A stretch of DNA of 43,085 nt from Spirochaetales bacterium (GTDB lineage: Bacteria > Spirochaetota > Spirochaetia > SZUA-6 > JAFGRV01): assembly GCA_016930085.1 (NCBI GenBank), contig JAFGHO010000015.1, forward strand, positions 1 through 43,085, in the 5' to 3' direction. The position numbers were made by a program, and so were the translations under genes. The notes under the pieces were generated by a model. The model searched no databases, had not been told where the DNA came from, and was given only the letters and a program-made list of their open reading frames with translations. Numbering within the stretch: the stretch's first letter is position 1; each line of letters opens with the position of its first letter. Below, in pieces: positions 6,472-19,775 of the stretch.

Positions 6472-6714
6472 ATGCCTATTTATCTCAAACTTATGAAAGG
6501 AAAAGGTTCAAAGGGGGAGATACTCGAGCTGGGTTTCTGTATGGATAATGATGAAGATATTTCAATCGATATCGAAACCGCCTTGAAAGAGGGGTTTACC
6601 ACAACCCAGGAGACGTTCGACAGGCTGAAACGACTTTCGGAACTCGGACAAATGTACGAGGAAGTGGACAAATCACATAAACTGGAATTCCGGGATCTGG
6701 AAGAAAAAAAATAA
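6472..6714 (+). CDS. Conserved-looking 80-residue protein, unknown function
   Basis: A small soluble, acidic protein is preceded by an excellent ribosome binding site (AAAGGAGG about 10 bases upstream). The N-terminal half looks like beta strands (MPIYLKLMKG, EILELGFCM) and the C-terminal half is helical and charged. It lies 48 bases before hisA and may be cotranscribed with it. I do not recognise the family. Confidence 0.65.
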   Translation: MPIYLKLMKGKGSKGEILELGFCMDNDEDISIDIETALKEGFTTTQETFDRLKRLSELGQMYEEVDKSHKLEFRDLEEKK

Positions 6715-6762
6715 AAATAATACTTTCCTTAAAATACTTATTCGTCAATAAGGATAATTTAA

Positions 6763-7485
6763 ATGATTATTATACCTTCAATCGATATATTGAATGGTTC
6801 CTGCGTCCGCCTTTACCAGGGCAAATATAACCAGGCGACGGTATATTCGAAAGATCCTGTGGAGATTGCCCACAGTTTCGAAGATGCGGGTGCGCGGAGA
6901 ATTCATATTATCGATCTGGATGCCGCCCGTGGTGAAGGACGGAATAACCGTAAAAAAATCGGACTCATAAGAAAGGCAGTCGGTGCGACCATTGAGGTCG
7001 GGGGGGGTATCCGAACACCGATCGATGTCGAAGAATTGCTTTCGATCGGTATTGATAAACTTATTCTGGGCACCGTTTTAGCGCAGCAGCCGACGGCGGT
7101 CGCTTCCTGGGTAAAAGAATATGGGGATGTTTTTATCGCGGGTATCGATGCTGTGAACGGGAATGTGAAGATATCCGGGTGGGAAGACAATGCCGGGGTC
7201 GACGATGTCGGTCTGGCGTGTGAGGCTAGAGACATCGGTTTTACCGGAATTATCTATACGAATATCGCCCATGACGGGGCATTGGACGGGCCGGATATTG
7301 ACCGGACAGCCCTGATCGCGGAACAATCGAAATTACCCGTTATTCTTTCGGGTGGAATCGGTTCGGAGGCGGATGTGGAAGCGGTAGTACGGAAGGCCCA
7401 TCCGGGTATTATCGGTATTATTATCGGTAAAGCGATATATGAGGGAAAGGTTTCGCTGCCCGGTCTTCTCGAATCCTATCATTGA
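6763..7485 (+). CDS. hisA: HisA, ProFAR isomerase of histidine biosynthesis
   Basis: The 240-residue TIM-barrel enzyme isomerises ProFAR to PRFAR, the fourth step of histidine synthesis. The N-terminus (IPSIDILNG) carries catalytic Asp8. VEVGGGIR-like IEVGGGIRT binds phosphate at about 78-85, and the second catalytic Asp is D129 in GIDAVNG. ILSGGIGS supplies the second phosphate site. TNIAHDGALDGPD matches the loop seen in HisA (usually T-D-I-x-x-D-G) rather than HisF. Length is normal. No other his genes are nearby, so it is detached from the canonical operon. Confidence 0.93.
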   Translation: MIIIPSIDILNGSCVRLYQGKYNQATVYSKDPVEIAHSFEDAGARRIHIIDLDAARGEGRNNRKKIGLIRKAVGATIEVGGGIRTPIDVEELLSIGIDKLILGTVLAQQPTAVASWVKEYGDVFIAGIDAVNGNVKISGWEDNAGVDDVGLACEARDIGFTGIIYTNIAHDGALDGPDIDRTALIAEQSKLPVILSGGIGSEADVEAVVRKAHPGIIGIIIGKAIYEGKVSLPGLLESYH

Positions 7486-7616: not shown

Positions 7617-7710
7617 CAAATCCTGATAAATATGGTATTGTTTCATTTTCTATTGATTCCGGAAGGTGGGACACACCAATATCGATACTAAAAAAAAGGA
7701 GTGTTTGATT

Positions 7711-9054
7711 ATGATCGGTTGCCATCTGGGACGGATTTTTCAGGTAACTGTCGGGGGCGGGTCTTATCAGGAAGGACTGACCGCGGTTTTGCAGGGCGTT
7801 CCTGCGGGCATGAGTATTACGGAACCGGAGATCTACGCGGATCTTCTTTTGAGGAAGCCGGGAGCGGATGAACTGTCTTCACCGAGAAAGGAGCCGGATC
7901 TTCCGGTCATCTATTGCGGCGTGAACGCCGCCGATACGGTCGAGAACGCGGGAAATAAACATCTGACCAATGGCACGCCGCTCTGTATTCTCATCCCCAA
8001 TCTCGACAGGCATTTCATTCATATAAAACAATATCAGGATACAAACCGGACCCCGCGGCCGGGACATGCCTCATTCGCATCGTTCAACAAGTACGGACTC
8101 GCGGATGATGCGATTGGCGCGGGAATTTTCTCCGGGAGATACTCGAGTACCATCGTCGCCGCGGGTGCCGTGGCCAAGAAAATCCTTGCTGCCTGCGGCA
8201 TCAGGATTTGTTCGTATGTTAAAGAAGCGGCGGGCGTCAACTGCGGTGATATCGTCCATGATGTCGCCTTCAGATACACCGAATCCTATAAAAAAATGCG
8301 GCGGGATTACGATCCCTTTTATCAGGAGATTTATGAAAAAGGACGGATTCATGCCGATATGCGTTTTCTCGAAAAAATGAGTGTATTTGCAGAGATCGAG
8401 AAGGAAATCGATCAGGTCAGGGAAAAGGCACCGGCAATAAAGGAAGAGGAAATTCTTGAAAAGTACAGGGTACATCATATTGTCAATTGCCCGGATATTT
8501 CGGCCGCAAAGGAAATGGTCGAAGCGGTAAACAGGATAACGGCGACGGGTGATTCGAGCGGCGGTATTGTCGAGATTATCGTCGATGGTGTTCCCGTCGG
8601 ACTGGGAGAACCGGTCTTTTATAAACTCGATGCGGAACTCGGAAGAATGCTCGGCATCGGAGCGGTCAAGGCAGTCGAGATAGGGGCCGGAATAAAGGTC
8701 AAAGATATGACCGGCTACGAATGCAATGATCAGATGCGTTCGGAAAAGGGGAAGGTAATATTCGATTCAAATAACGCCGGCGGAATCACGGGGGGGCTTG
8801 CCACCGGACAACCCCTCGTCATTCGTTGTACCGTCAAACCGACACCGACAATCAATAAAAAACAGCATACAATCGACAAATATACCCTCGAAAACAGGGA
8901 TCTCGGTGCTATTACACGACGTGACCCGACTATCGTTGCCAGAATCTGGCCCGTTGCCGAAAATTATACGGCCCTTGTCGTCCTTGACAATCTCATTGCG
9001 CATTTCGGGTACCAACGATTGCAGGAGATTATGCGGCAGGAATCAAAACAGTAA
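7711..9054 (+). CDS. Divergent chorismate-synthase homologue lacking hallmark active-site residues
   Basis: This 447-residue protein clearly belongs to the chorismate synthase fold: L-G-R-I-F-Q-V-T at the N-terminus, RPGHA (116-120), VAAGAVAKKIL, DSSGGIVEIIVDGVPVGLGEPVF, and SNNAGGITGG with QPLVIRCTVKPTPTI. Residues normally near invariant are changed. The GESHG histidine becomes Tyr19 (GGGSYQ), RPGHAD becomes RPGHAS, the GGRSSARET substrate/FMN segment becomes GIFSGRYSST (about 138-147), and RHDPC becomes RRDPT. It is also longer than usual (about 360-390) through a charged insertion at about 200-270. Start 7711 was chosen for AAAGGAG at 7696-7702; a start at 7666 is possible but poor. It probably does not make chorismate by the normal mechanism; its real reaction is unknown. 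Confidence 0.85.
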   Translation: MIGCHLGRIFQVTVGGGSYQEGLTAVLQGVPAGMSITEPEIYADLLLRKPGADELSSPRKEPDLPVIYCGVNAADTVENAGNKHLTNGTPLCILIPNLDRHFIHIKQYQDTNRTPRPGHASFASFNKYGLADDAIGAGIFSGRYSSTIVAAGAVAKKILAACGIRICSYVKEAAGVNCGDIVHDVAFRYTESYKKMRRDYDPFYQEIYEKGRIHADMRFLEKMSVFAEIEKEIDQVREKAPAIKEEEILEKYRVHHIVNCPDISAAKEMVEAVNRITATGDSSGGIVEIIVDGVPVGLGEPVFYKLDAELGRMLGIGAVKAVEIGAGIKVKDMTGYECNDQMRSEKGKVIFDSNNAGGITGGLATGQPLVIRCTVKPTPTINKKQHTIDKYTLENRDLGAITRRDPTIVARIWPVAENYTALVVLDNLIAHFGYQRLQEIMRQESKQ

Positions 9055-9124: not shown

Positions 9125-10150
9125 ATGAAGAGCTTACCGGATTTTGTAAAAAACACGCTGTCACCGCGATTCGGTGCCGATCCCCCGTCCATTATCTTTT
9201 TGGGTGGGGGTCAGGACTGGTCGGACGGGATAGTGTTTCGGTTCGAACATAGTGAGGGTGAACGTGTTATAAAGTTTGTCGATTTTGCACAAACGGATGA
9301 TAAAGCGTTGTTCCGCATGGAAGAAAAGATTTTGTATATAAAACGGATGTCGGAAAGCGGAACGAGCGTCATTGAACCCGAATTGTCGGTCAACGGGAAT
9401 CATTTTGAGATATGTTCTTTTGAAGGAAAAAACTGGCTCGCTTATTCTTATCCGTATGTCCCCGGAAGACCGGTGAATGCGGGCGATACTGTTGTCAGGA
9501 ACGGCATGTTTCACAGACATATCGGCACGATCCTCGGGAAATTACATACCGTTGCATCGGAATTACCGGAAGAAGGGTTTACCGCTAATAAAAAGAAGCA
9601 GAGTCTGCTGTCTGACTGGACGGAGGAATGGGAGTTCTTCCGCTCGTGGTGCCGGGATGATGAAGTGGGTTCGGCCTGGGAAAGGTTGAAGCATGCCGTT
9701 CTGCGTCTTGATGTCGAGCGAAAAGTCTACGGATTCATACACAATGATGCCCATGCCGCGAATTTTATCTTCAATCCGGCTTCGGCAACAGGACAGGAGC
9801 GTAATAAATTCGATCTCACCCTGATTGATTTTGATGTGGCACGATTCCATTTTTTTACCTGCGAAGTCGCGGCGGCCCTGTATTCATTCGTCAGCCTCGA
9901 AACCGGCGGGCTGGAAACCATACGGACACTCGATAAAGATCGGAAGCGGTTTTTATATTCATCTTTTATGAAGGGGTACGAACAATTCAGGAGTCCCTTG
10001 CCGGAGTGGCTGGATCATCTGAGGTTGTTCATTCAATACAGGCGTTGTCTTCTCTTCATGCCGTTCCAGGAACAGACCGCAAAATATCCTGCCTGGCGAA
10101 AACGCTGGAAGAAGCGGATCATGGAGAATGATAAAAAGCTGTTTGGCTGA
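9125..10150 (+). CDS. APH/choline-kinase-fold phosphotransferase
   Basis: This 341-residue protein has the aminoglycoside phosphotransferase kinase-like fold. An N-lobe with IVFRFEHSEGERVIKFVDF supplies the ATP-binding lysine. The Brenner motif HNDAHAAN carries catalytic D208 (H206 to N213), and LIDFDVAR supplies the metal-binding D235. Members phosphorylate small alcohols (choline, homoserine, sugars, antibiotics) or proteins. It follows the chorismate-synthase homologue by 70 bases on the same strand and may be cotranscribed; a shared small-molecule pathway is possible. Nothing points to drug resistance. The substrate is unknown. Confidence 0.82.
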   Translation: MKSLPDFVKNTLSPRFGADPPSIIFLGGGQDWSDGIVFRFEHSEGERVIKFVDFAQTDDKALFRMEEKILYIKRMSESGTSVIEPELSVNGNHFEICSFEGKNWLAYSYPYVPGRPVNAGDTVVRNGMFHRHIGTILGKLHTVASELPEEGFTANKKKQSLLSDWTEEWEFFRSWCRDDEVGSAWERLKHAVLRLDVERKVYGFIHNDAHAANFIFNPASATGQERNKFDLTLIDFDVARFHFFTCEVAAALYSFVSLETGGLETIRTLDKDRKRFLYSSFMKGYEQFRSPLPEWLDHLRLFIQYRRCLLFMPFQEQTAKYPAWRKRWKKRIMENDKKLFG

Positions 10151-10236: not shown

Positions 10237-13200
10237 TTAGCCGGCCGGATGCATACACCCGGTTTTTCCGTTACATGCTTTGTTGATAACAAGTTTTTCA
10301 TTTATTTTATCAACGAAACTTTTTTGTATTCCCTGTGCCGTGAGTTCGAGCGCGATATATCGTTTGTTATTTTTTTGTATCATTTTAAAATAATACAAGA
10401 ACATGAGAAGACATATCATCGTAAACGATAATAAAAGCACATTGATTTTTCCGTTCGTTATTTTTCCGACAATATCGCACAACGGCATTCCGGCGGACAT
10501 TATTATCGCCCCGCCTAAATTTCCTTTGGGCGCGGCACCAAGCCTGTACGCCATTTCATGCGACCAGGGTTTTGCGAAGAAATTGACGATATGAGTGAAT
10601 GTTCCGGATTTCTTCATCAAAGAAACAATGGGACGCGCCAGCACATAGTAGCCCGTCATGACATCGGGCCGTGTTTTATGCAGCAATGCGCCGAATTCAG
10701 TATCCGCTCTGAAAACCCATTCCTCCATCAATCCCTGCCTGTATAATTCCGTGCATATAATCGTCGCATCACCGATATCGCTGAAGAAATCGCCGATATT
10801 TTCGGCGACATCGATACCGAAGTCGCCGAGGCCGTCGACGAAATCGCTGCCCGCTTCCCACACGGCGCGGCCGGCGGCCTCAAAGGCCTCAACCGAATCG
10901 ACGAATCCTTCGGCGATTGCCGTCGAGGCGTCGATAAATCCGCCGAGGGCGGCTTCTCCGATTGAGATAAAACCTTCCCTGACGGCATCCGCCCCGGAAA
11001 TAAAACCGTCGACAAGGGCAGTGGTGACGTCCATGAATCCATTGGCCACGGCTTCGACACCCGTGATGAACCCATTGGTCAACGCGGTCGTGACATCCAT
11101 GAAACCGTTGGCGACCGCCTCGACCCCGGTAATAAATCCGTTCGCGATCGCGGAGGTGACATCGATCAATCCGTTGGCGACCGCCTCGACCCCGGTGATG
11201 AATCCCTCTCCGATGGCCTCCGCTACCGTAATGAAGCCCTGTGCGACCGCTTCGACCCCGGTGATGAATCCTTCACCGATCGCCTCGGCGACGGTAATGA
11301 ATCCCTCCCCGATCGCTTCGGCGACATCGATAACTCCTTCACCGATAAGTTCGGCCGTATCGGCTATTTCGTTGAAATCTATCTGGAAACTCAGGTCGAT
11401 CTCCACTCCCAGTATCAACTGGATCTCCCCGGAAATCCCGACAGTGAGTGTTCCGTCGCTGAAGCCGAATTCCCCGCCCACTCCGAATTCCACCGCGGCA
11501 CCTGCGCTGACGCCGCCGCCGCCGTTCATCCCGATTCCGGCAACCTGGCCTTCGGCGTAATACGCCGCGTTCGCGGATACGCCGGCGCCGAGATTCATAT
11601 CCCCCTCGGCACCGTAATCACCGTCGCCGTAATGAACGCCGCCTTGTCCGTCGACATAGGCATAAGCCGATGCACCGACGGCGCCTCCGGCACCCGCCGA
11701 AGTTCCGGGAATGGCCGCCAGTCTGACTTCCCCGTCAGCCGAAAGCGAGACATTCGCCTGTACCCCCGCATACGCCTCAACGGTAAAGTCTTCATCGGTC
11801 GCCTGGAAATGGGCTTCAAGTTCCGCCGAGACATATGCTTCCGCCGTTACCGTGCCCGTCGCCGTTACGGCATTCCCCAGGGTAACCGATCCGCCCGCCG
11901 TCGCCACGGCTCCGGCTTCAATATATGCCCGTGCGCCCATGCGTACTCCATCGGGGCCGACCGTTAAAGCGGCATCGAATCCCGCGTCTGCGTATAACCG
12001 GGCATTGGCGTAACCGCTGATACGGGCCGCCCCGTTCAATGCTTCCATCTGGGCGTCTGTTGCGACATATGCACTGATATGCATGCCGCCGCTGACGCTG
12101 AAACATGTCGTTGAATGGTCAAGACTGATTATGTTGTTCTGAATGTCCCGAACCGGAATCGCATAGACGCCTTTGTCCACGGGAATGGAATTATTGGGGA
12201 TAACACCGGCAGGCAGGTCCGAGACGAGTATTAAGGTGTTCGGATCCAGAGGCTGGTTCAGGAAAGACGAAAGATCGATGTCCGTCGTATAATCGCGGCT
12301 CGATACGAAACCGTCGTCGAATCGGAGGTGATCGACAACGATCATGTTTACCCTTGTGATCATGCCCGGGTCGTCAATGGAGGAGATTTCCAGTACATTG
12401 CCGATACGTTTGACGGTGAAGTCGCTTCGTCTGCCGTCGAACCGAATAACGGTATCGCCGTTGTTCGCCACATACATATCATTTGACACCGGGACGAAGA
12501 TTGTCCGGACGGCCCTTACGCCCCTGCAATCGGATGAGCCTTCGAGCGTCACATTGATTTGAAATGATTCGTATTGCCCGTTGATGTCCAGAGAAAGACC
12601 CGTCAGGTCCTCTTTGGCCAGAACGGCGCACCCATCGGTATAAAGGATTTCGCTTCCATCCGGCCGTATCAATGAGACCCCGGAAGGGAGACCGGATAGA
12701 GTGATTCGGACATTTCTTTTCAACAGGGGATTGACGACAATATCGAGAGGGATACGGCCCTGTACGGCTTCACCGTTCACAACATCGATGCCGAAGTCGC
12801 CCGACTGTGCAAAAAGAAGGGTATCATTCGTCGGGGTTATATACAGATGGAGCGGTGTACTCCATTTATGCAGTTTACGATGTGTTTTATAAAATGCTGT
12901 CACCTTGAGATTGAGTTTTCCGAAAAAACCGGGACGCACGTCAAGGCATATCGTGTTGTCGAGCAGCGTTTTTGCGTCAAGCAGCTGGAAATATTCTCCA
13001 TTCTTGTCGAGTTGCGGCATACTGCCTTCTTTGACAATAACCGATTGAGGTAATCCGCTGATAACCACCGTCTGGATATCGAGATGCCGGTTCATGCGGG
13101 GGAGAGCGACTGGAATTGAACGGCCGGATTCCATGACGGGATAATTAACAAGAATATCCTCAACATCGAAGAACCGGAGGGTTTCTCCTTTCGGTGTTGT

Positions 13201-14676
13201 TATTACCCCGCTGATCGTGTCGGATGTCGACCTGAACATTAAGTATGAATAAAGCGGCTGCCGGGAACCGCCGTCGGGCGTGATTTTCCACCCTTTGATG
13301 GTGAGCACACGGTCCAGGCCGATGATATCCGCTCCCGGTCCTCCGTCGAAACGGTCGTTGCCGTCGCCGGGGGCATACACATAGGTATCGTCACCCTGAC
13401 CACCGCTTGCAAGGTCATCGCCCCCGCCGCCGCAGATCCAGTCGGCGTCGATTCCTCCGGAAATATTGTCGTTACCGTTCCCGCCGTTTATAATATTCCG
13501 GCCCGATGATACAATCAGCGTATCATCGCCGTCACCGCCCGATACGACATCATCGCCATTGCCCCCGTCGATATAATCCTCCCCGGCTCCTCCAGTCATT
13601 CTGTCCGAACCATAACCGCCGAAGAGGGTGTCGTTTCCCTCACCGCCGCGTATTACATCATTACCGTCAAAACCGTCGATTGTATCCGCACCATCACCGC
13701 CGTCAAAATAATCGTCTCCGGCGGTGCCCGCCAAATCGTCGATACCTTCATTGGCGGAACCAAAGGGTTCGATGTCTTCCGCAACCACAAAGAGATCAAA
13801 AGGTCCGGTGTTTCCGGGCACGGCCTCCATGGTGCCGAACAAACCCGTGTCTGTGCTTCCGGCCCGGCAGCCGGAAGAAATCGTTATGCTTCGCGCACCC
13901 ACATTCCCTTCCACGATTACCCCCGGCATGATCGATACTTCACCAAAGGGTGTGATAAGCGAACCCGGAAATTCCTGGTTCGGAAAGAGTGATATATCAT
14001 CAAGTCCGTAGAGAACAATCATGCCCGATCCGTTTATATGATAGTGAATCCGGCTGCCGAGTAAAACCTTGCCCGCTACGTTGATACGTACCGGACCGTT
14101 GCCGGTATCGAAATTTATTGTTACATCAGGTCCGATATTCAAGGATTTAAAATTATACGTTCCGCTGCGCAGCCAAATCGATGAACGGGAATGCACACTG
14201 GTGTCGCCGAAAGCCCCCGGGGCAAGATATTCGTTCATTCCGTTTTTGATAACTACCATTCGATTAATTACGGGAAACGCCTCGGCCGGAATTACCGGAA
14301 TATATATATCTTCTTCTCCGGACACGGGTGTTTCGTGAAAACGACCGAAGCAGATTCTTTTACCTGACCTATAAAAAGGCATTTTGAAGCGCCGGTGGTT
14401 CCATGAGACATCCCTTCCGTTAAACTCCAAATTCCCGTCTACCGTCGCATCAGGATGAATAAAAGCGGTTCCGGCAATGACATCTCCGAGAAGGGTTGCC
14501 CCGGATTGAACGGTCAGCCGCTCCGTCGCGATAATGGATGCATCGCAACAGGGAGTACCGAATGCGGCACCGGGAATCAGGGTAACGATGAAAAGCAGTA
14601 TGACCATTGGAATGGTCCCCTTTATTCTTCCATAGTCCCACGGATGAGATCGATAATGTAATGTCAGACTTTTCAT
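10237..14676 (-). CDS. Giant exported RTX protein with 11-residue repeat array
   Basis: The 1479-residue product starts with a signal peptide (about 20-42, ending AAFG). Residues about 45-310 look like a beta-helix, with bactofilin-like repeats such as VQSGATLLGDVIAGTAFIHP. RTX calcium-binding nonapeptides (GGxGxDxxx) fill about 315-455. A beta-rich region (455-830) includes a second RTX-tail motif (DFTVKRIGNVLEI, HLRFDDGF). A Gly/Ala-rich segment spans about 835-1090, then 14 tandem 11-residue repeats occupy 1112-1265. The C-terminus has a conserved-looking helical domain (about 1300-1400), a transmembrane helix (about 1410-1430, NVLLLSFTMICLLMFLYYF) and a basic tail. It is probably a surface or secreted adhesin or structural protein. 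The C-terminal helix suggests membrane anchoring, unusual for type I-secreted RTX proteins. No secretion genes are adjacent. Confidence 0.85.
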   Translation of the reverse strand: MKSLTLHYRSHPWDYGRIKGTIPMVILLFIVTLIPGAAFGTPCCDASIIATERLTVQSGATLLGDVIAGTAFIHPDATVDGNLEFNGRDVSWNHRRFKMPFYRSGKRICFGRFHETPVSGEEDIYIPVIPAEAFPVINRMVVIKNGMNEYLAPGAFGDTSVHSRSSIWLRSGTYNFKSLNIGPDVTINFDTGNGPVRINVAGKVLLGSRIHYHINGSGMIVLYGLDDISLFPNQEFPGSLITPFGEVSIMPGVIVEGNVGARSITISSGCRAGSTDTGLFGTMEAVPGNTGPFDLFVVAEDIEPFGSANEGIDDLAGTAGDDYFDGGDGADTIDGFDGNDVIRGGEGNDTLFGGYGSDRMTGGAGEDYIDGGNGDDVVSGGDGDDTLIVSSGRNIINGGNGNDNISGGIDADWICGGGGDDLASGGQGDDTYVYAPGDGNDRFDGGPGADIIGLDRVLTIKGWKITPDGGSRQPLYSYLMFRSTSDTISGVITTPKGETLRFFDVEDILVNYPVMESGRSIPVALPRMNRHLDIQTVVISGLPQSVIVKEGSMPQLDKNGEYFQLLDAKTLLDNTICLDVRPGFFGKLNLKVTAFYKTHRKLHKWSTPLHLYITPTNDTLLFAQSGDFGIDVVNGEAVQGRIPLDIVVNPLLKRNVRITLSGLPSGVSLIRPDGSEILYTDGCAVLAKEDLTGLSLDINGQYESFQINVTLEGSSDCRGVRAVRTIFVPVSNDMYVANNGDTVIRFDGRRSDFTVKRIGNVLEISSIDDPGMITRVNMIVVDHLRFDDGFVSSRDYTTDIDLSSFLNQPLDPNTLILVSDLPAGVIPNNSIPVDKGVYAIPVRDIQNNIISLDHSTTCFSVSGGMHISAYVATDAQMEALNGAARISGYANARLYADAGFDAALTVGPDGVRMGARAYIEAGAVATAGGSVTLGNAVTATGTVTAEAYVSAELEAHFQATDEDFTVEAYAGVQANVSLSADGEVRLAAIPGTSAGAGGAVGASAYAYVDGQGGVHYGDGDYGAEGDMNLGAGVSANAAYYAEGQVAGIGMNGGGGVSAGAAVEFGVGGEFGFSDGTLTVGISGEIQLILGVEIDLSFQIDFNEIADTAELIGEGVIDVAEAIGEGFITVAEAIGEGFITGVEAVAQGFITVAEAIGEGFITGVEAVANGLIDVTSAIANGFITGVEAVANGFMDVTTALTNGFITGVEAVANGFMDVTTALVDGFISGADAVREGFISIGEAALGGFIDASTAIAEGFVDSVEAFEAAGRAVWEAGSDFVDGLGDFGIDVAENIGDFFSDIGDATIICTELYRQGLMEEWVFRADTEFGALLHKTRPDVMTGYYVLARPIVSLMKKSGTFTHIVNFFAKPWSHEMAYRLGAAPKGNLGGAIIMSAGMPLCDIVGKITNGKINVLLLSFTMICLLMFLYYFKMIQKNNKRYIALELTAQGIQKSFVDKINEKLVINKACNGKTGCMHPAG
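10882..11343 (-). repeat. 14 tandem 33-bp repeats encoding 11-residue units
   Basis: Fourteen in-frame units of exactly 33 bp follow the consensus (A/G)(N/E)GFI(T/D)(G/V)(V/A)(E/T)A(V/I), for example GEGFITVAEAI and ANGFITGVEAV. The central units alternate between a GVEAV-type and a DVTTA/VAEAI-type, giving a 66-bp super-period. The outer copies (AEGFVDSVEAF, GEGVIDVAEAI) are more divergent. An 11-residue period with no proline is the signature of a long hendecad helix. Confidence 0.92.
13320..13725 (-). repeat. RTX calcium-binding nonapeptide array
   Basis: About a dozen G-G-x-G-x-D-x-x-x units are encoded here, such as GGDGADTID, GGEGNDTLF and GGNGDDVVS. They form a parallel beta-roll that folds on binding calcium, typically after export. 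Confidence 0.9.
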
Positions 14677-17118: not shown

Positions 17119-17311
17119 GGACTATCGTATACCGATTTACGACAATTGTCAAACCGGCGAATCGCCGGTTTGACCTGCCGCATCGAATGAATGCGCGGGG
17201 GCGGCATAAAACCACATTAATTGGCCCGAAAATCTCATTAATCGGAGTTAAAATTGAATGCGAAAATGCCCCGGAAGGTGTCATAATGAAAGAAAAAGCA
17301 AGGAGGAACCA

Positions 17312-18427
17312 ATGAAAGGAATTGTGAAACGAATATGGTTCATATTAATGGTGCTTGCAGGCATTGTCGTGTATCCGTACGCCCAGTCCCCGGGCGATGT
17401 CAATAATGACGGGACCGTCACTATTGTCGACGCGTTGCTTGTTGCCCAGTATTATGTCGGGCTTAATCCGGCTGTGTTTTCTCTTGATGCGGCGGATGTG
17501 AACTGCGATTCTGCGATAAATATCGTGGACGCCCTGCTTGTCGCGCAGTATTACGTTGGGCTGGTTGACGAATTCCCCTGTTCCGCCACGCCTGTGCCCA
17601 CATTGCCCCCCGGGGGGACGGAGGTCGATGTGTTCGGTATCACGATGTTCTATCCGACCCTCACCTCGTCCCTCGGCTGGGATTCCCGTCACTGGGACAA
17701 TGGTATCGAGAGAACGCTTTCCAACGATATCATGAGCGGGAACGATCCTGAAGACCCGACATTCTGGTCCGAATACCGCGGAAGCGGGGTGCTTACCATC
17801 GATGGCAGGGGCATGCTGACCATGGGCGGCAGCCAGCCGCGGATCTATATTAATCCGTATCCGGGGACGGAGGAAACGAATCCGGAGATGTTTTTCAAGA
17901 ACGTGGAAGTGACCGTTTACTACATGAGAATAGGAACCGACGGCGCGAACTGGGGAGGGTGTGTTATCGGTGTGAGAAGCGGGCCGAACGGCCATTCGAG
18001 CTGGGGTGACTACTGCGACGCGACCACCTATTACGCGCGCCTCAGACATGACGGGAATGTCGATTTTTACAAGGAACTGAAGCATCCGGACGGCGATTAC
18101 GTGATGCACCATGAGTACTGGGGCGGGGATCCCCTTCCATCCAGCCGGTGGATCGGGGTCAAGGTCTGCGCGTACAATATATCGGGCGATTCCGAGGTAA
18201 AGCTGGAAATGTACATCGACAAAACAAGCGGGGGAGCGAACGGGGGGGTATGGGAAAAGGCGATCGAGTATATCGACGACGGATCGTGGACGGTTCCTGC
18301 GTCCGGTTGTCCCTACCCCGAAAACATGCCGATTACCGAAGGCGGCGGGGTGGTCATGATCAGGAACACCGACGCGGCGGAGGCCCGGTACAAGATGTTT
18401 TCCGTTCGGGAGATCAATGTGCGGTAG
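17312..18427 (+). CDS. Secreted dockerin-bearing protein, probably polysaccharide-active
   Basis: The 371-residue product has a signal peptide (about 1-24, cleaved near YAQS). A type I dockerin follows, made of two calcium-binding loop-helix repeats ([20 protein letters not shown] and [20 protein letters not shown], about 28-85), then a Pro/Thr linker (about 90-102). The C-terminal domain of about 265 residues is rich in Trp, Tyr and Gly and looks like a jelly-roll beta-sandwich as in polysaccharide lyases or LamG-type domains; I cannot name its family. Start 17312 was chosen for AAGGAGG at 17300-17306. It is divergent from the membrane AraC regulator and convergent with a pectate lyase carrying the same dockerin. 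Confidence 0.82.
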   Translation: MKGIVKRIWFILMVLAGIVVYPYAQSPGDVNNDGTVTIVDALLVAQYYVGLNPAVFSLDAADVNCDSAINIVDALLVAQYYVGLVDEFPCSATPVPTLPPGGTEVDVFGITMFYPTLTSSLGWDSRHWDNGIERTLSNDIMSGNDPEDPTFWSEYRGSGVLTIDGRGMLTMGGSQPRIYINPYPGTEETNPEMFFKNVEVTVYYMRIGTDGANWGGCVIGVRSGPNGHSSWGDYCDATTYYARLRHDGNVDFYKELKHPDGDYVMHHEYWGGDPLPSSRWIGVKVCAYNISGDSEVKLEMYIDKTSGGANGGVWEKAIEYIDDGSWTVPASGCPYPENMPITEGGGVVMIRNTDAAEARYKMFSVREINVR

Positions 18428-18581: not shown

Positions 18582-19775
18582 CTATATTTTCCCGACACCC
18601 GCATTCCCGGTCACGATCGATGTTACCTGATCCGTCGAATGCAGCTGGTAGCTGTACGGCGGATTGAAGGTGCATGTCGATGAGGTCGGCCGGCTGCCGG
18701 TGCAGTTGATGAACCGGTTGTCCCTTACATCCCAATACCCCGTCGAGTCGCTGTCCCAGTATCCGATGGGATCGTCTGCGGACTCGAAAACGTTGTTTTC
18801 GATTCTGAGCTGCGCACCCTGCCTGCAGTTGATCCCCGTCGTCGCGATATTGATGTAATAGTTGTTGTAAATGTGCCCCGTTCCGAAACGGTAGGACGGC
18901 AGGCGTGAATTGCAGTCCGCGAAATAGTTGTGGTGGTAGGTGATCTTTCTGTCATAGTCGTCGCTGTCCGACGAGCCGACGAGCGACGTCTTGTATGAAT
19001 GGTGGCAGTAATTCCAGGAAAAGGTGATGTATTCGCTTTCCGCCTTGGCGTCGAAAAGACCGTCATAGTAGTCCTTGTCGTGGTCGAGATCGTTGTACAA
19101 CTCGCAGTGATCGATCCAGACATGATCGGAGGGTCCCTCGATCCCGATACAGTCCTTGTCGCCGATGTCGACATGGTGGATGCGGAGGTTTCTGATAATG
19201 ATATTGCCGGCGCGCCATACCTTTATCCCGATCCCGTTGAGTTCCCCGCTTGTTCCGACACCGATGATTGAAATGTCTCTGACATCCTTGATGTCGATTT
19301 TCGAAAGGCCGCTTGAATTGGATTCGGTAATGGTCCCGTTGACATAGATGACACGGGGGCCGCCCGCTTTGATCGCGTTCTGGAGGTCCGTCCCTGTGTT
19401 GACCGTCACCGAGGGGCCGCCCGCGCCGCCTGTCGTTCCCCCGTTCAGTGTCGCGAAACCGACGAGGCTCGAATCGATCTGGCCCGGAGGAGAGGTGGGT
19501 GTCGGACTTTCGCAGGGAAAGGACGAAATAAGCCCCACGTAATATTGGGCGACGAGCAACGCATCGACAATATTGATGCCGCCCTCACAATTGACGTCGG
19601 CGCTGCCCGCATTGAATCCACCCGGATTGAGGCCCACGTAATGTTGAGCGATGAGAAGGGCATCGACGATGTCGATACTCGAATTCCCGTTGACATCGCC
19701 CATGGTCTGGGCCGGAAGTGAAAGTACTCCCGTGATTATAAAAACAAAGACAATTAAAAAAAGCCGTTTATTCAT
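18582..19775 (-). CDS. Secreted PL1-family pectate lyase with N-terminal dockerin
   Basis: This 397-residue enzyme cleaves polygalacturonate by beta-elimination outside the cell. A signal peptide (1-22) is followed by a two-repeat dockerin ([40 protein letters not shown]; about 26-85), a Pro/Ser/Thr linker, and a PL1 right-handed beta-helix (about 105-397). PL1 landmarks are [10 protein letters not shown], the calcium-binding [18 protein letters not shown], and the catalytic-arginine segment [17 protein letters not shown] (R-x-P-x-x-R-x-G). AAGGAG precedes the start. The dockerin implies tethering to a cohesin partner or another calcium-dependent interaction; no cohesin gene is in the window. 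Confidence 0.93.

What the first reader, a model, noticed from the sequence alone, without database searches (positions are those of the whole stretch)
7711..9054. Chorismate-synthase homologue without the canonical active site
The fold signatures are unmistakable, yet the GESHG histidine is Tyr, RPGHAD is RPGHAS, the GGRSSARET segment is GIFSGRYSST, and RHDPC is RRDPT; the protein is also 60 or more residues longer. Chorismate synthase is otherwise extremely conserved. Loss of several residues together suggests a new reaction or a regulatory role, not simple decay, since the rest is intact.
Basis: partly seen in the sequence, partly recalled or inferred. Interest (0 to 1): 0.74.

Follow-up and report, generated by a model that had tools for sequence, protein, structure and literature searches.

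The report
Chorismate synthase lacking its invariant histidine
The gene almost certainly encodes the cell's only chorismate synthase, the last enzyme of the pathway to the aromatic amino acids; it belongs to a separate conserved group, found in several bacterial phyla, in which a histidine reported from all known versions of the enzyme is always a tyrosine.

Summary
The motif observations are correct, but the proposed new reaction or regulatory role is not supported. The protein (7711-9054, 447 aa) is a full-length PF01264 protein with the chorismate synthase fold and is the only PF01264 protein in its 96%-complete Spirochaetota genome. The variant forms a strongly supported clade spread over Spirochaetota, Planctomycetota, Fibrobacterota, Lentisphaerota, Omnitrophota and others. 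47 of 50 such genomes, including three single-contig chromosomes, lack a full canonical aroC. The gene lies directly behind aroA in 29 of 77 loci. Every arginine reported to hold EPSP, the flavin-protonating His and the N5-priming Asp are kept. The real change is the leaving-phosphate His (N. crassa His17): Tyr in all 97 variant sequences, His in all 67 canonical ones, together with GRH->TRR, a new invariant His104 and a helical insertion. Most likely it is an ordinary chorismate synthase with an altered leaving-group acid that spread by replacing canonical aroC. Activity and the identity of the acid are untested.

The parts
7711..9054 (+). Divergent chorismate synthase gene (called AroC-Y here), 447 aa, stop included
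   Evidence: PF01264 305 bits over positions 1-326 of 327; TIGR00033 307 bits; fold matches only chorismate synthases
7696..7701 (+). Probable ribosome-binding site AAGGAG, 9 bases before the ATG
   Evidence: read directly from the sequence
7765..7767 (+). Tyr19 codon (TAT) at the position of the invariant His (N. crassa His17, E. coli His19)
   Evidence: Tyr in 97/97 variants and in L274; His in 67/67 canonical sequences
8011..8022 (+). His101 to His104, in a loop longer than in canonical AroC; both His invariant in the variants, His104 also in L274; candidate substitute acid
8056..8073 (+). RPGHAS: Arg116 (EPSP) and His119 (flavin N1) kept; Asp->Ser121 changed
8122..8151 (+). GIFSGRYSST: Ser141 and Arg143 kept; Arg125->Ile, Glu130->Tyr, Arg134->Ile changed (E. 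coli numbers)
8275..8481 (+). Insertion of about 70 residues relative to canonical AroC, predicted as confident helices
   Evidence: alignment; models
8914..8931 (+). TRRDPT: Arg403 (EPSP) and Asp405 (flavin N5) kept; Gly->Thr402, His->Arg404, Cys->Thr407 changed
6763..7485 (+). hisA directly upstream; linkage seen only in the window's own family
   Evidence: TIGR00007 232 bits, over its cut-off; neighbourhoods

Best explanation
The gene encodes the organism's chorismate synthase (EPSP -> chorismate + phosphate, using reduced FMN), of a divergent type. Shown: family, fold, sole copy, pathway context, conservation, and retention of the EPSP-holding arginines, the flavin-protonating His (His119) and the N5-priming Asp (Asp405). 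Inferred: it binds reduced FMN and EPSP as usual, the C3-O bond breaks first, and flavin N5 takes the C6 hydrogen. Also inferred: the departing phosphate is protonated or held by Tyr19, or by His104 from the lengthened loop, instead of the usual His17. The type probably spread between phyla by replacing canonical aroC (inferred from the tree and the near mutual exclusion).
For: Only PF01264 gene in G000 beside aroA, two chorismate-binding enzymes, prephenate dehydratase and aroB. No full canonical aroC in 47 of 50 genomes with the variant, including three single-contig chromosomes; near mutual exclusion in Spirochaetota, Fisher p about 1e-10, including variant-only genomes 98-99% complete (G420, G442). 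aroA directly upstream in 29 of 77 loci, gaps mostly under 100 bp; the adjacent AroA is over its curated cut-off. All five EPSP arginines (R46, R103, R129, R354, R362 in P. brasiliensis), His106 and Asp367 equivalents kept. dN/dS very low. Fold Z 27.2 over 341 residues to 1QXO.
Against: No activity has been measured. The leaving-phosphate His, described as present across all known species (PMC2386126), is absent, as are Arg125, Arg134, Glu130 and Asp108 (E. coli numbers), each fixed in the canonical set. The NF003793 chorismate synthase model is just missed (307 of 321 bits). The active-site loops are not confidently modelled. Six genomes carry both types, so a division of labour there is possible. 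No aroB match in G077 and G080.
Confidence: 0.87

Rival explanations
1. A paralogue with a new reaction: it binds FMN and an EPSP-like substrate but makes a different product.
For: Several residues fixed in canonical enzymes are changed together and fixed in the variant; six genomes carry both types.
Against: In variant-only genomes with anthranilate-synthase-type enzymes and prephenate dehydratase nothing else of the family could make chorismate. Linkage to a normal aroA. Neighbourhoods in genomes with both types share no pathway theme. Substrate arginines kept.
Confidence: 0.06
2. A regulatory or catalytically dead homologue, as the first reader suggested as an alternative.
For: Loss of one catalytic His.
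Against: Asp405, whose mutation costs 300-600-fold in N. crassa (PMC3509576), His119 and all EPSP arginines are invariant. No other chorismate synthase in most genomes.
Confidence: 0.03
3. The canonical aroC is merely missing from the incomplete assembly, and the variant is an accessory copy.
For: The own genome is 95.95% complete in 135 contigs; a relative of the same family, G003, has both genes.
Against: Three other genomes of the family (G001, G002, G004) also lack canonical aroC; G442 (99% complete), G420 (98%) and three single-contig chromosomes likewise hold only the variant.
Confidence: 0.04

Closest known systems
Canonical chorismate synthase AroC (PF01264 / TIGR00033; E. coli, S. pneumoniae 1QXO, N. 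crassa, M. tuberculosis)
   Same: Fold, FMN-site glycine and KPT segments, EPSP arginines, flavin-protonating His, N5-priming Asp, both active-site serines; pathway position and linkage to aroA
   Different: His17->Tyr, GRH->TRR, Cys->Thr, several second-shell changes, new invariant His101 and His104, about 10- and 70-residue insertions; separate clade
Intermediate AroC of G413 (L274:533-1723)
   Same: Tyr in place of His17 (GESYGGG), TRRDPS, His104; groups with the variants in the tree (99 SH-aLRT)
   Different: Lacks the large insertion, keeps SGRET and has RPGHAE; at most 50% identical to any row

Membership tests
Chorismate synthase superfamily (PF01264 / TIGR00033) | Profile score over curated cut-off along the whole model | tested here: met
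   PF01264 305.3 (cut-off 27), positions 1-326 of 327; TIGR00033 307.2 (cut-off 212.2)
Chorismate synthase superfamily (PF01264 / TIGR00033) | Chorismate synthase beta-alpha-beta fold | tested here: met
   All 28 PDB matches at E <= 0.001 are chorismate synthases; Z 27.2 over 341 residues to 1QXO
Chorismate synthase superfamily (PF01264 / TIGR00033) | Residues that hold EPSP, protonate flavin N1 and prime flavin N5 | tested here: met
   Arg48, Arg116, Arg143, Arg403, Arg411, His119 and Asp405 invariant
Chorismate synthase, as an enzyme | Converts EPSP to chorismate with reduced FMN | not testable with these tools
   Only genomic inference: sole copy plus pathway genes
Canonical chorismate synthase | Invariant leaving-phosphate His in GESHG | tested here: not met
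   Tyr19; Tyr in 97/97 variants, His in 67/67 canonical rows
Canonical chorismate synthase | RHDP signature with GRH | tested here: not met
   TRRDPT; Arg and Asp kept, Gly and His not
Canonical chorismate synthase | NCBIfam NF003793 curated cut-off of 321 bits | tested here: not met
   307.2 bits
Canonical chorismate synthase | Groups with canonical sequences in a tree | tested here: not met
   Canonical rows on one side of a branch (99 SH-aLRT), variants on the other (100)

The most novel reading that the evidence does not exclude
A second catalytic design for chorismate synthase exists. The proton for the leaving phosphate comes from Tyr19 or from a relocated histidine (His104) instead of the 'universal' His17, and this design has repeatedly displaced the canonical enzyme in Planctomycetota, Spirochaetota, Fibrobacterota and other phyla.
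Probability: 0.6. Interest if true: 0.6.

Novelty: new variant of a known kind. Interest (0 to 1): 0.48.

Why it matters
The His at this position has been described as present in chorismate synthases across all known species and as the proton donor to the leaving phosphate (PMC2386126). A widespread group of sole-copy enzymes of this central pathway without it is a natural test of that mechanism. It also means that signature searches and inhibitor designs built around the GESHG histidine would miss a large group of bacteria. No paper naming this type was found in the library, but that library lacks most subscription journals.

Tried and rejected
A second, normal aroC in the genome: none found. 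Viral carriage: no variant in viral contigs. Decay: rejected by strong purifying selection and intact reading frames. A specialised pathway in genomes with both types: the neighbourhoods looked at share no theme. One alignment attempt failed on a stop codon and was redone. The key mutagenesis paper on both histidines (PubMed 14668332) is not held. The first AlphaFold model had weak active-site loops; adding three canonical sequences found in viral contigs raised pTM from 0.80 to 0.84 but not the confidence of residues 102-140, so pocket geometry was not interpreted. The second match in G494 and the short extra PF01264 fragments in G064 and G109 were not resolved. A weak CyaB match (E 0.007), largely within the insertion, was taken as chance.

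Full report
Observation. The ORF at 7711-9054 encodes 447 aa, is preceded by AAGGAG, and matches the whole of PF01264 (305 bits) and TIGR00033 (307 bits). They are not errors: seven close relatives (71-81% identical) and 97 variant sequences in all share them.

What is kept and what is lost. In an alignment with 64 canonical sequences the variant keeps Arg48, Arg116, Arg143, Arg403 and Arg411. These correspond to the five arginines that hold EPSP in the P. brasiliensis enzyme (R46, R103, R129, R354, R362; PMC11633415; mapped by alignment, using the yeast alignment for numbering). It keeps His119 (canonical His106, protonates flavin N1) and Asp405 (N. crassa Asp367, primes flavin N5; PMC3509576), and both active-site serines (Ser18, Ser141). 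It lacks the His proposed to protonate the leaving phosphate (N. crassa His17; PMC2386126): Tyr19 stands there in 97 of 97 variants, against His in 67 of 67 canonical rows. Linked changes fixed in the variants are GRH->TRR (Thr402, Arg404), Cys->Thr407, Glu130->Tyr144, Asp108->Ser121, new invariant His101 and His104 in a longer loop, and a helical insertion of about 70 residues.

A separate clade with an intermediate. A scan of GTDB representative genomes found 176 relatives, of which the best 80 were kept. By record title they come from MAGs of Spirochaetota, Planctomycetota (many Phycisphaerae and Sedimentisphaerales), Fibrobacterota and Chitinivibrionales, Lentisphaerota, Omnitrophota, Auribacterota, Ratteibacteria and Raymondbacteria. 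Scores in Spirochaetota are bimodal: variants 667-926 bits over the full length, all others at most 208 bits in separate pieces. In the tree, canonical rows lie on one side of a branch with 99 SH-aLRT support; the variants form a group with 100 support, joined by L274 at 99. L274 (G413) is an intermediate with GESYGGG, TRRDPS and His104 but no large insertion, so the His->Tyr and GRH->TRR changes probably came before the insertion. Within the clade, phyla are mixed on short branches, which suggests horizontal transfer (inference).

Function by context. The window's genome has no other PF01264 gene (95.95% complete) but has aroA (393 bits, cut-off 287), two chorismate-binding enzymes, a prephenate dehydratase and aroB. 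Not every step of the shikimate pathway was searched. Among 50 genomes with the variant, three also have a full canonical aroC (G089, G099, G105), two have two variants (G073, G081), and 45 have one variant and no full canonical gene, two of these (G064, G109) with a short extra PF01264 fragment. They include three single-contig chromosomes (G077, G080, G106). In G077 and G080 no DHQ synthase match was found, and G077's aroA reads only as a partial frame. In the Spirochaetota sample, 18 or 19 of 20 variant genomes lack canonical aroC whereas most others have it (Fisher p about 1e-10), including variant-only genomes of 98-99% completeness (G420, G442). aroA is directly upstream on the same strand in 29 of 77 loci and somewhere in the fetched flank in 42; the adjacent AroA scores 357-421 bits, over its curated cut-off, in all but the partial G077 case. 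In the window's own lineage the upstream neighbour is hisA instead. Purifying selection is strong: dN 0.12 with saturated dS, and dN/dS 0.034 for the one pair where the ratio could be computed.

Structure. Two AlphaFold models (pTM 0.80 and 0.84). For the first, all 28 significant PDB matches are chorismate synthases, with Z 27.2 over 341 residues to 1QXO, the FMN-EPSP complex. The insertion is predicted as confident helices. The loops around the active site (102-140, 399-403) are not confident, so the geometry around Tyr19 and His104 cannot be judged.

Mechanism. Shown: family, fold, retained substrate and flavin residues, sole copy, pathway genes, linkage to aroA. Inferred: the normal reaction takes place with reduced FMN, and the departing phosphate is protonated or held by Tyr19 or His104. 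Histidines in this active site are not all-or-nothing: the flavin-His mutant of N. crassa loses only about 20-fold (PMC3509576); the original paper, which treats both histidines, is not held.

Verdict. Not a new reaction, but a variant of a textbook enzyme that I found no report of, and that appears to have replaced the canonical one in many lineages. 'No report' rests on an open-access full-text library only.

Noticed in passing
L274:533-1723 (G413, Spirochaetota): An intermediate chorismate synthase: GESYGGG and TRRDPS like the variants, but no large insertion and SGRET like canonical enzymes.
   Followed up: partly
L259-L273 (Spirochaetota families f56, f72, f74, f77): A second subgroup of the variant with LLQRKPG and HFEHIEQY, at 667-711 bits to the first subgroup's profile.
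   Followed up: partly
G565, G073 and G081: Genomes with two full-length copies of the variant.
   Followed up: no
G077 and G080 (single-contig Planctomycetota chromosomes): No PF01761 (DHQ synthase) match although aroA, the variant aroC, chorismate-binding enzymes and prephenate dehydratase are present; possibly another route to dehydroquinate.
   Followed up: no
window 6472-7485 (+): A small unannotated 80-aa ORF and hisA sit directly upstream; both are kept in the window's family (G001, G004) but not elsewhere.
   Followed up: partly
window 9125-10150 (+): Phosphotransferase of the APH type downstream of the gene; not conserved as a neighbour.
   Followed up: no
window 10237-14676 (-): 1479-aa secreted-looking protein with GGxGxD-type calcium-binding repeats and long repeats of the form A(V/I)(A/G)(E/N)GFI.
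   Followed up: no
window 17258-18427 (+) and 18582-19775 (-): Two secreted proteins with dockerin-like N-terminal repeats facing each other; the second looks like a pectate lyase (by eye, no search).
   Followed up: no
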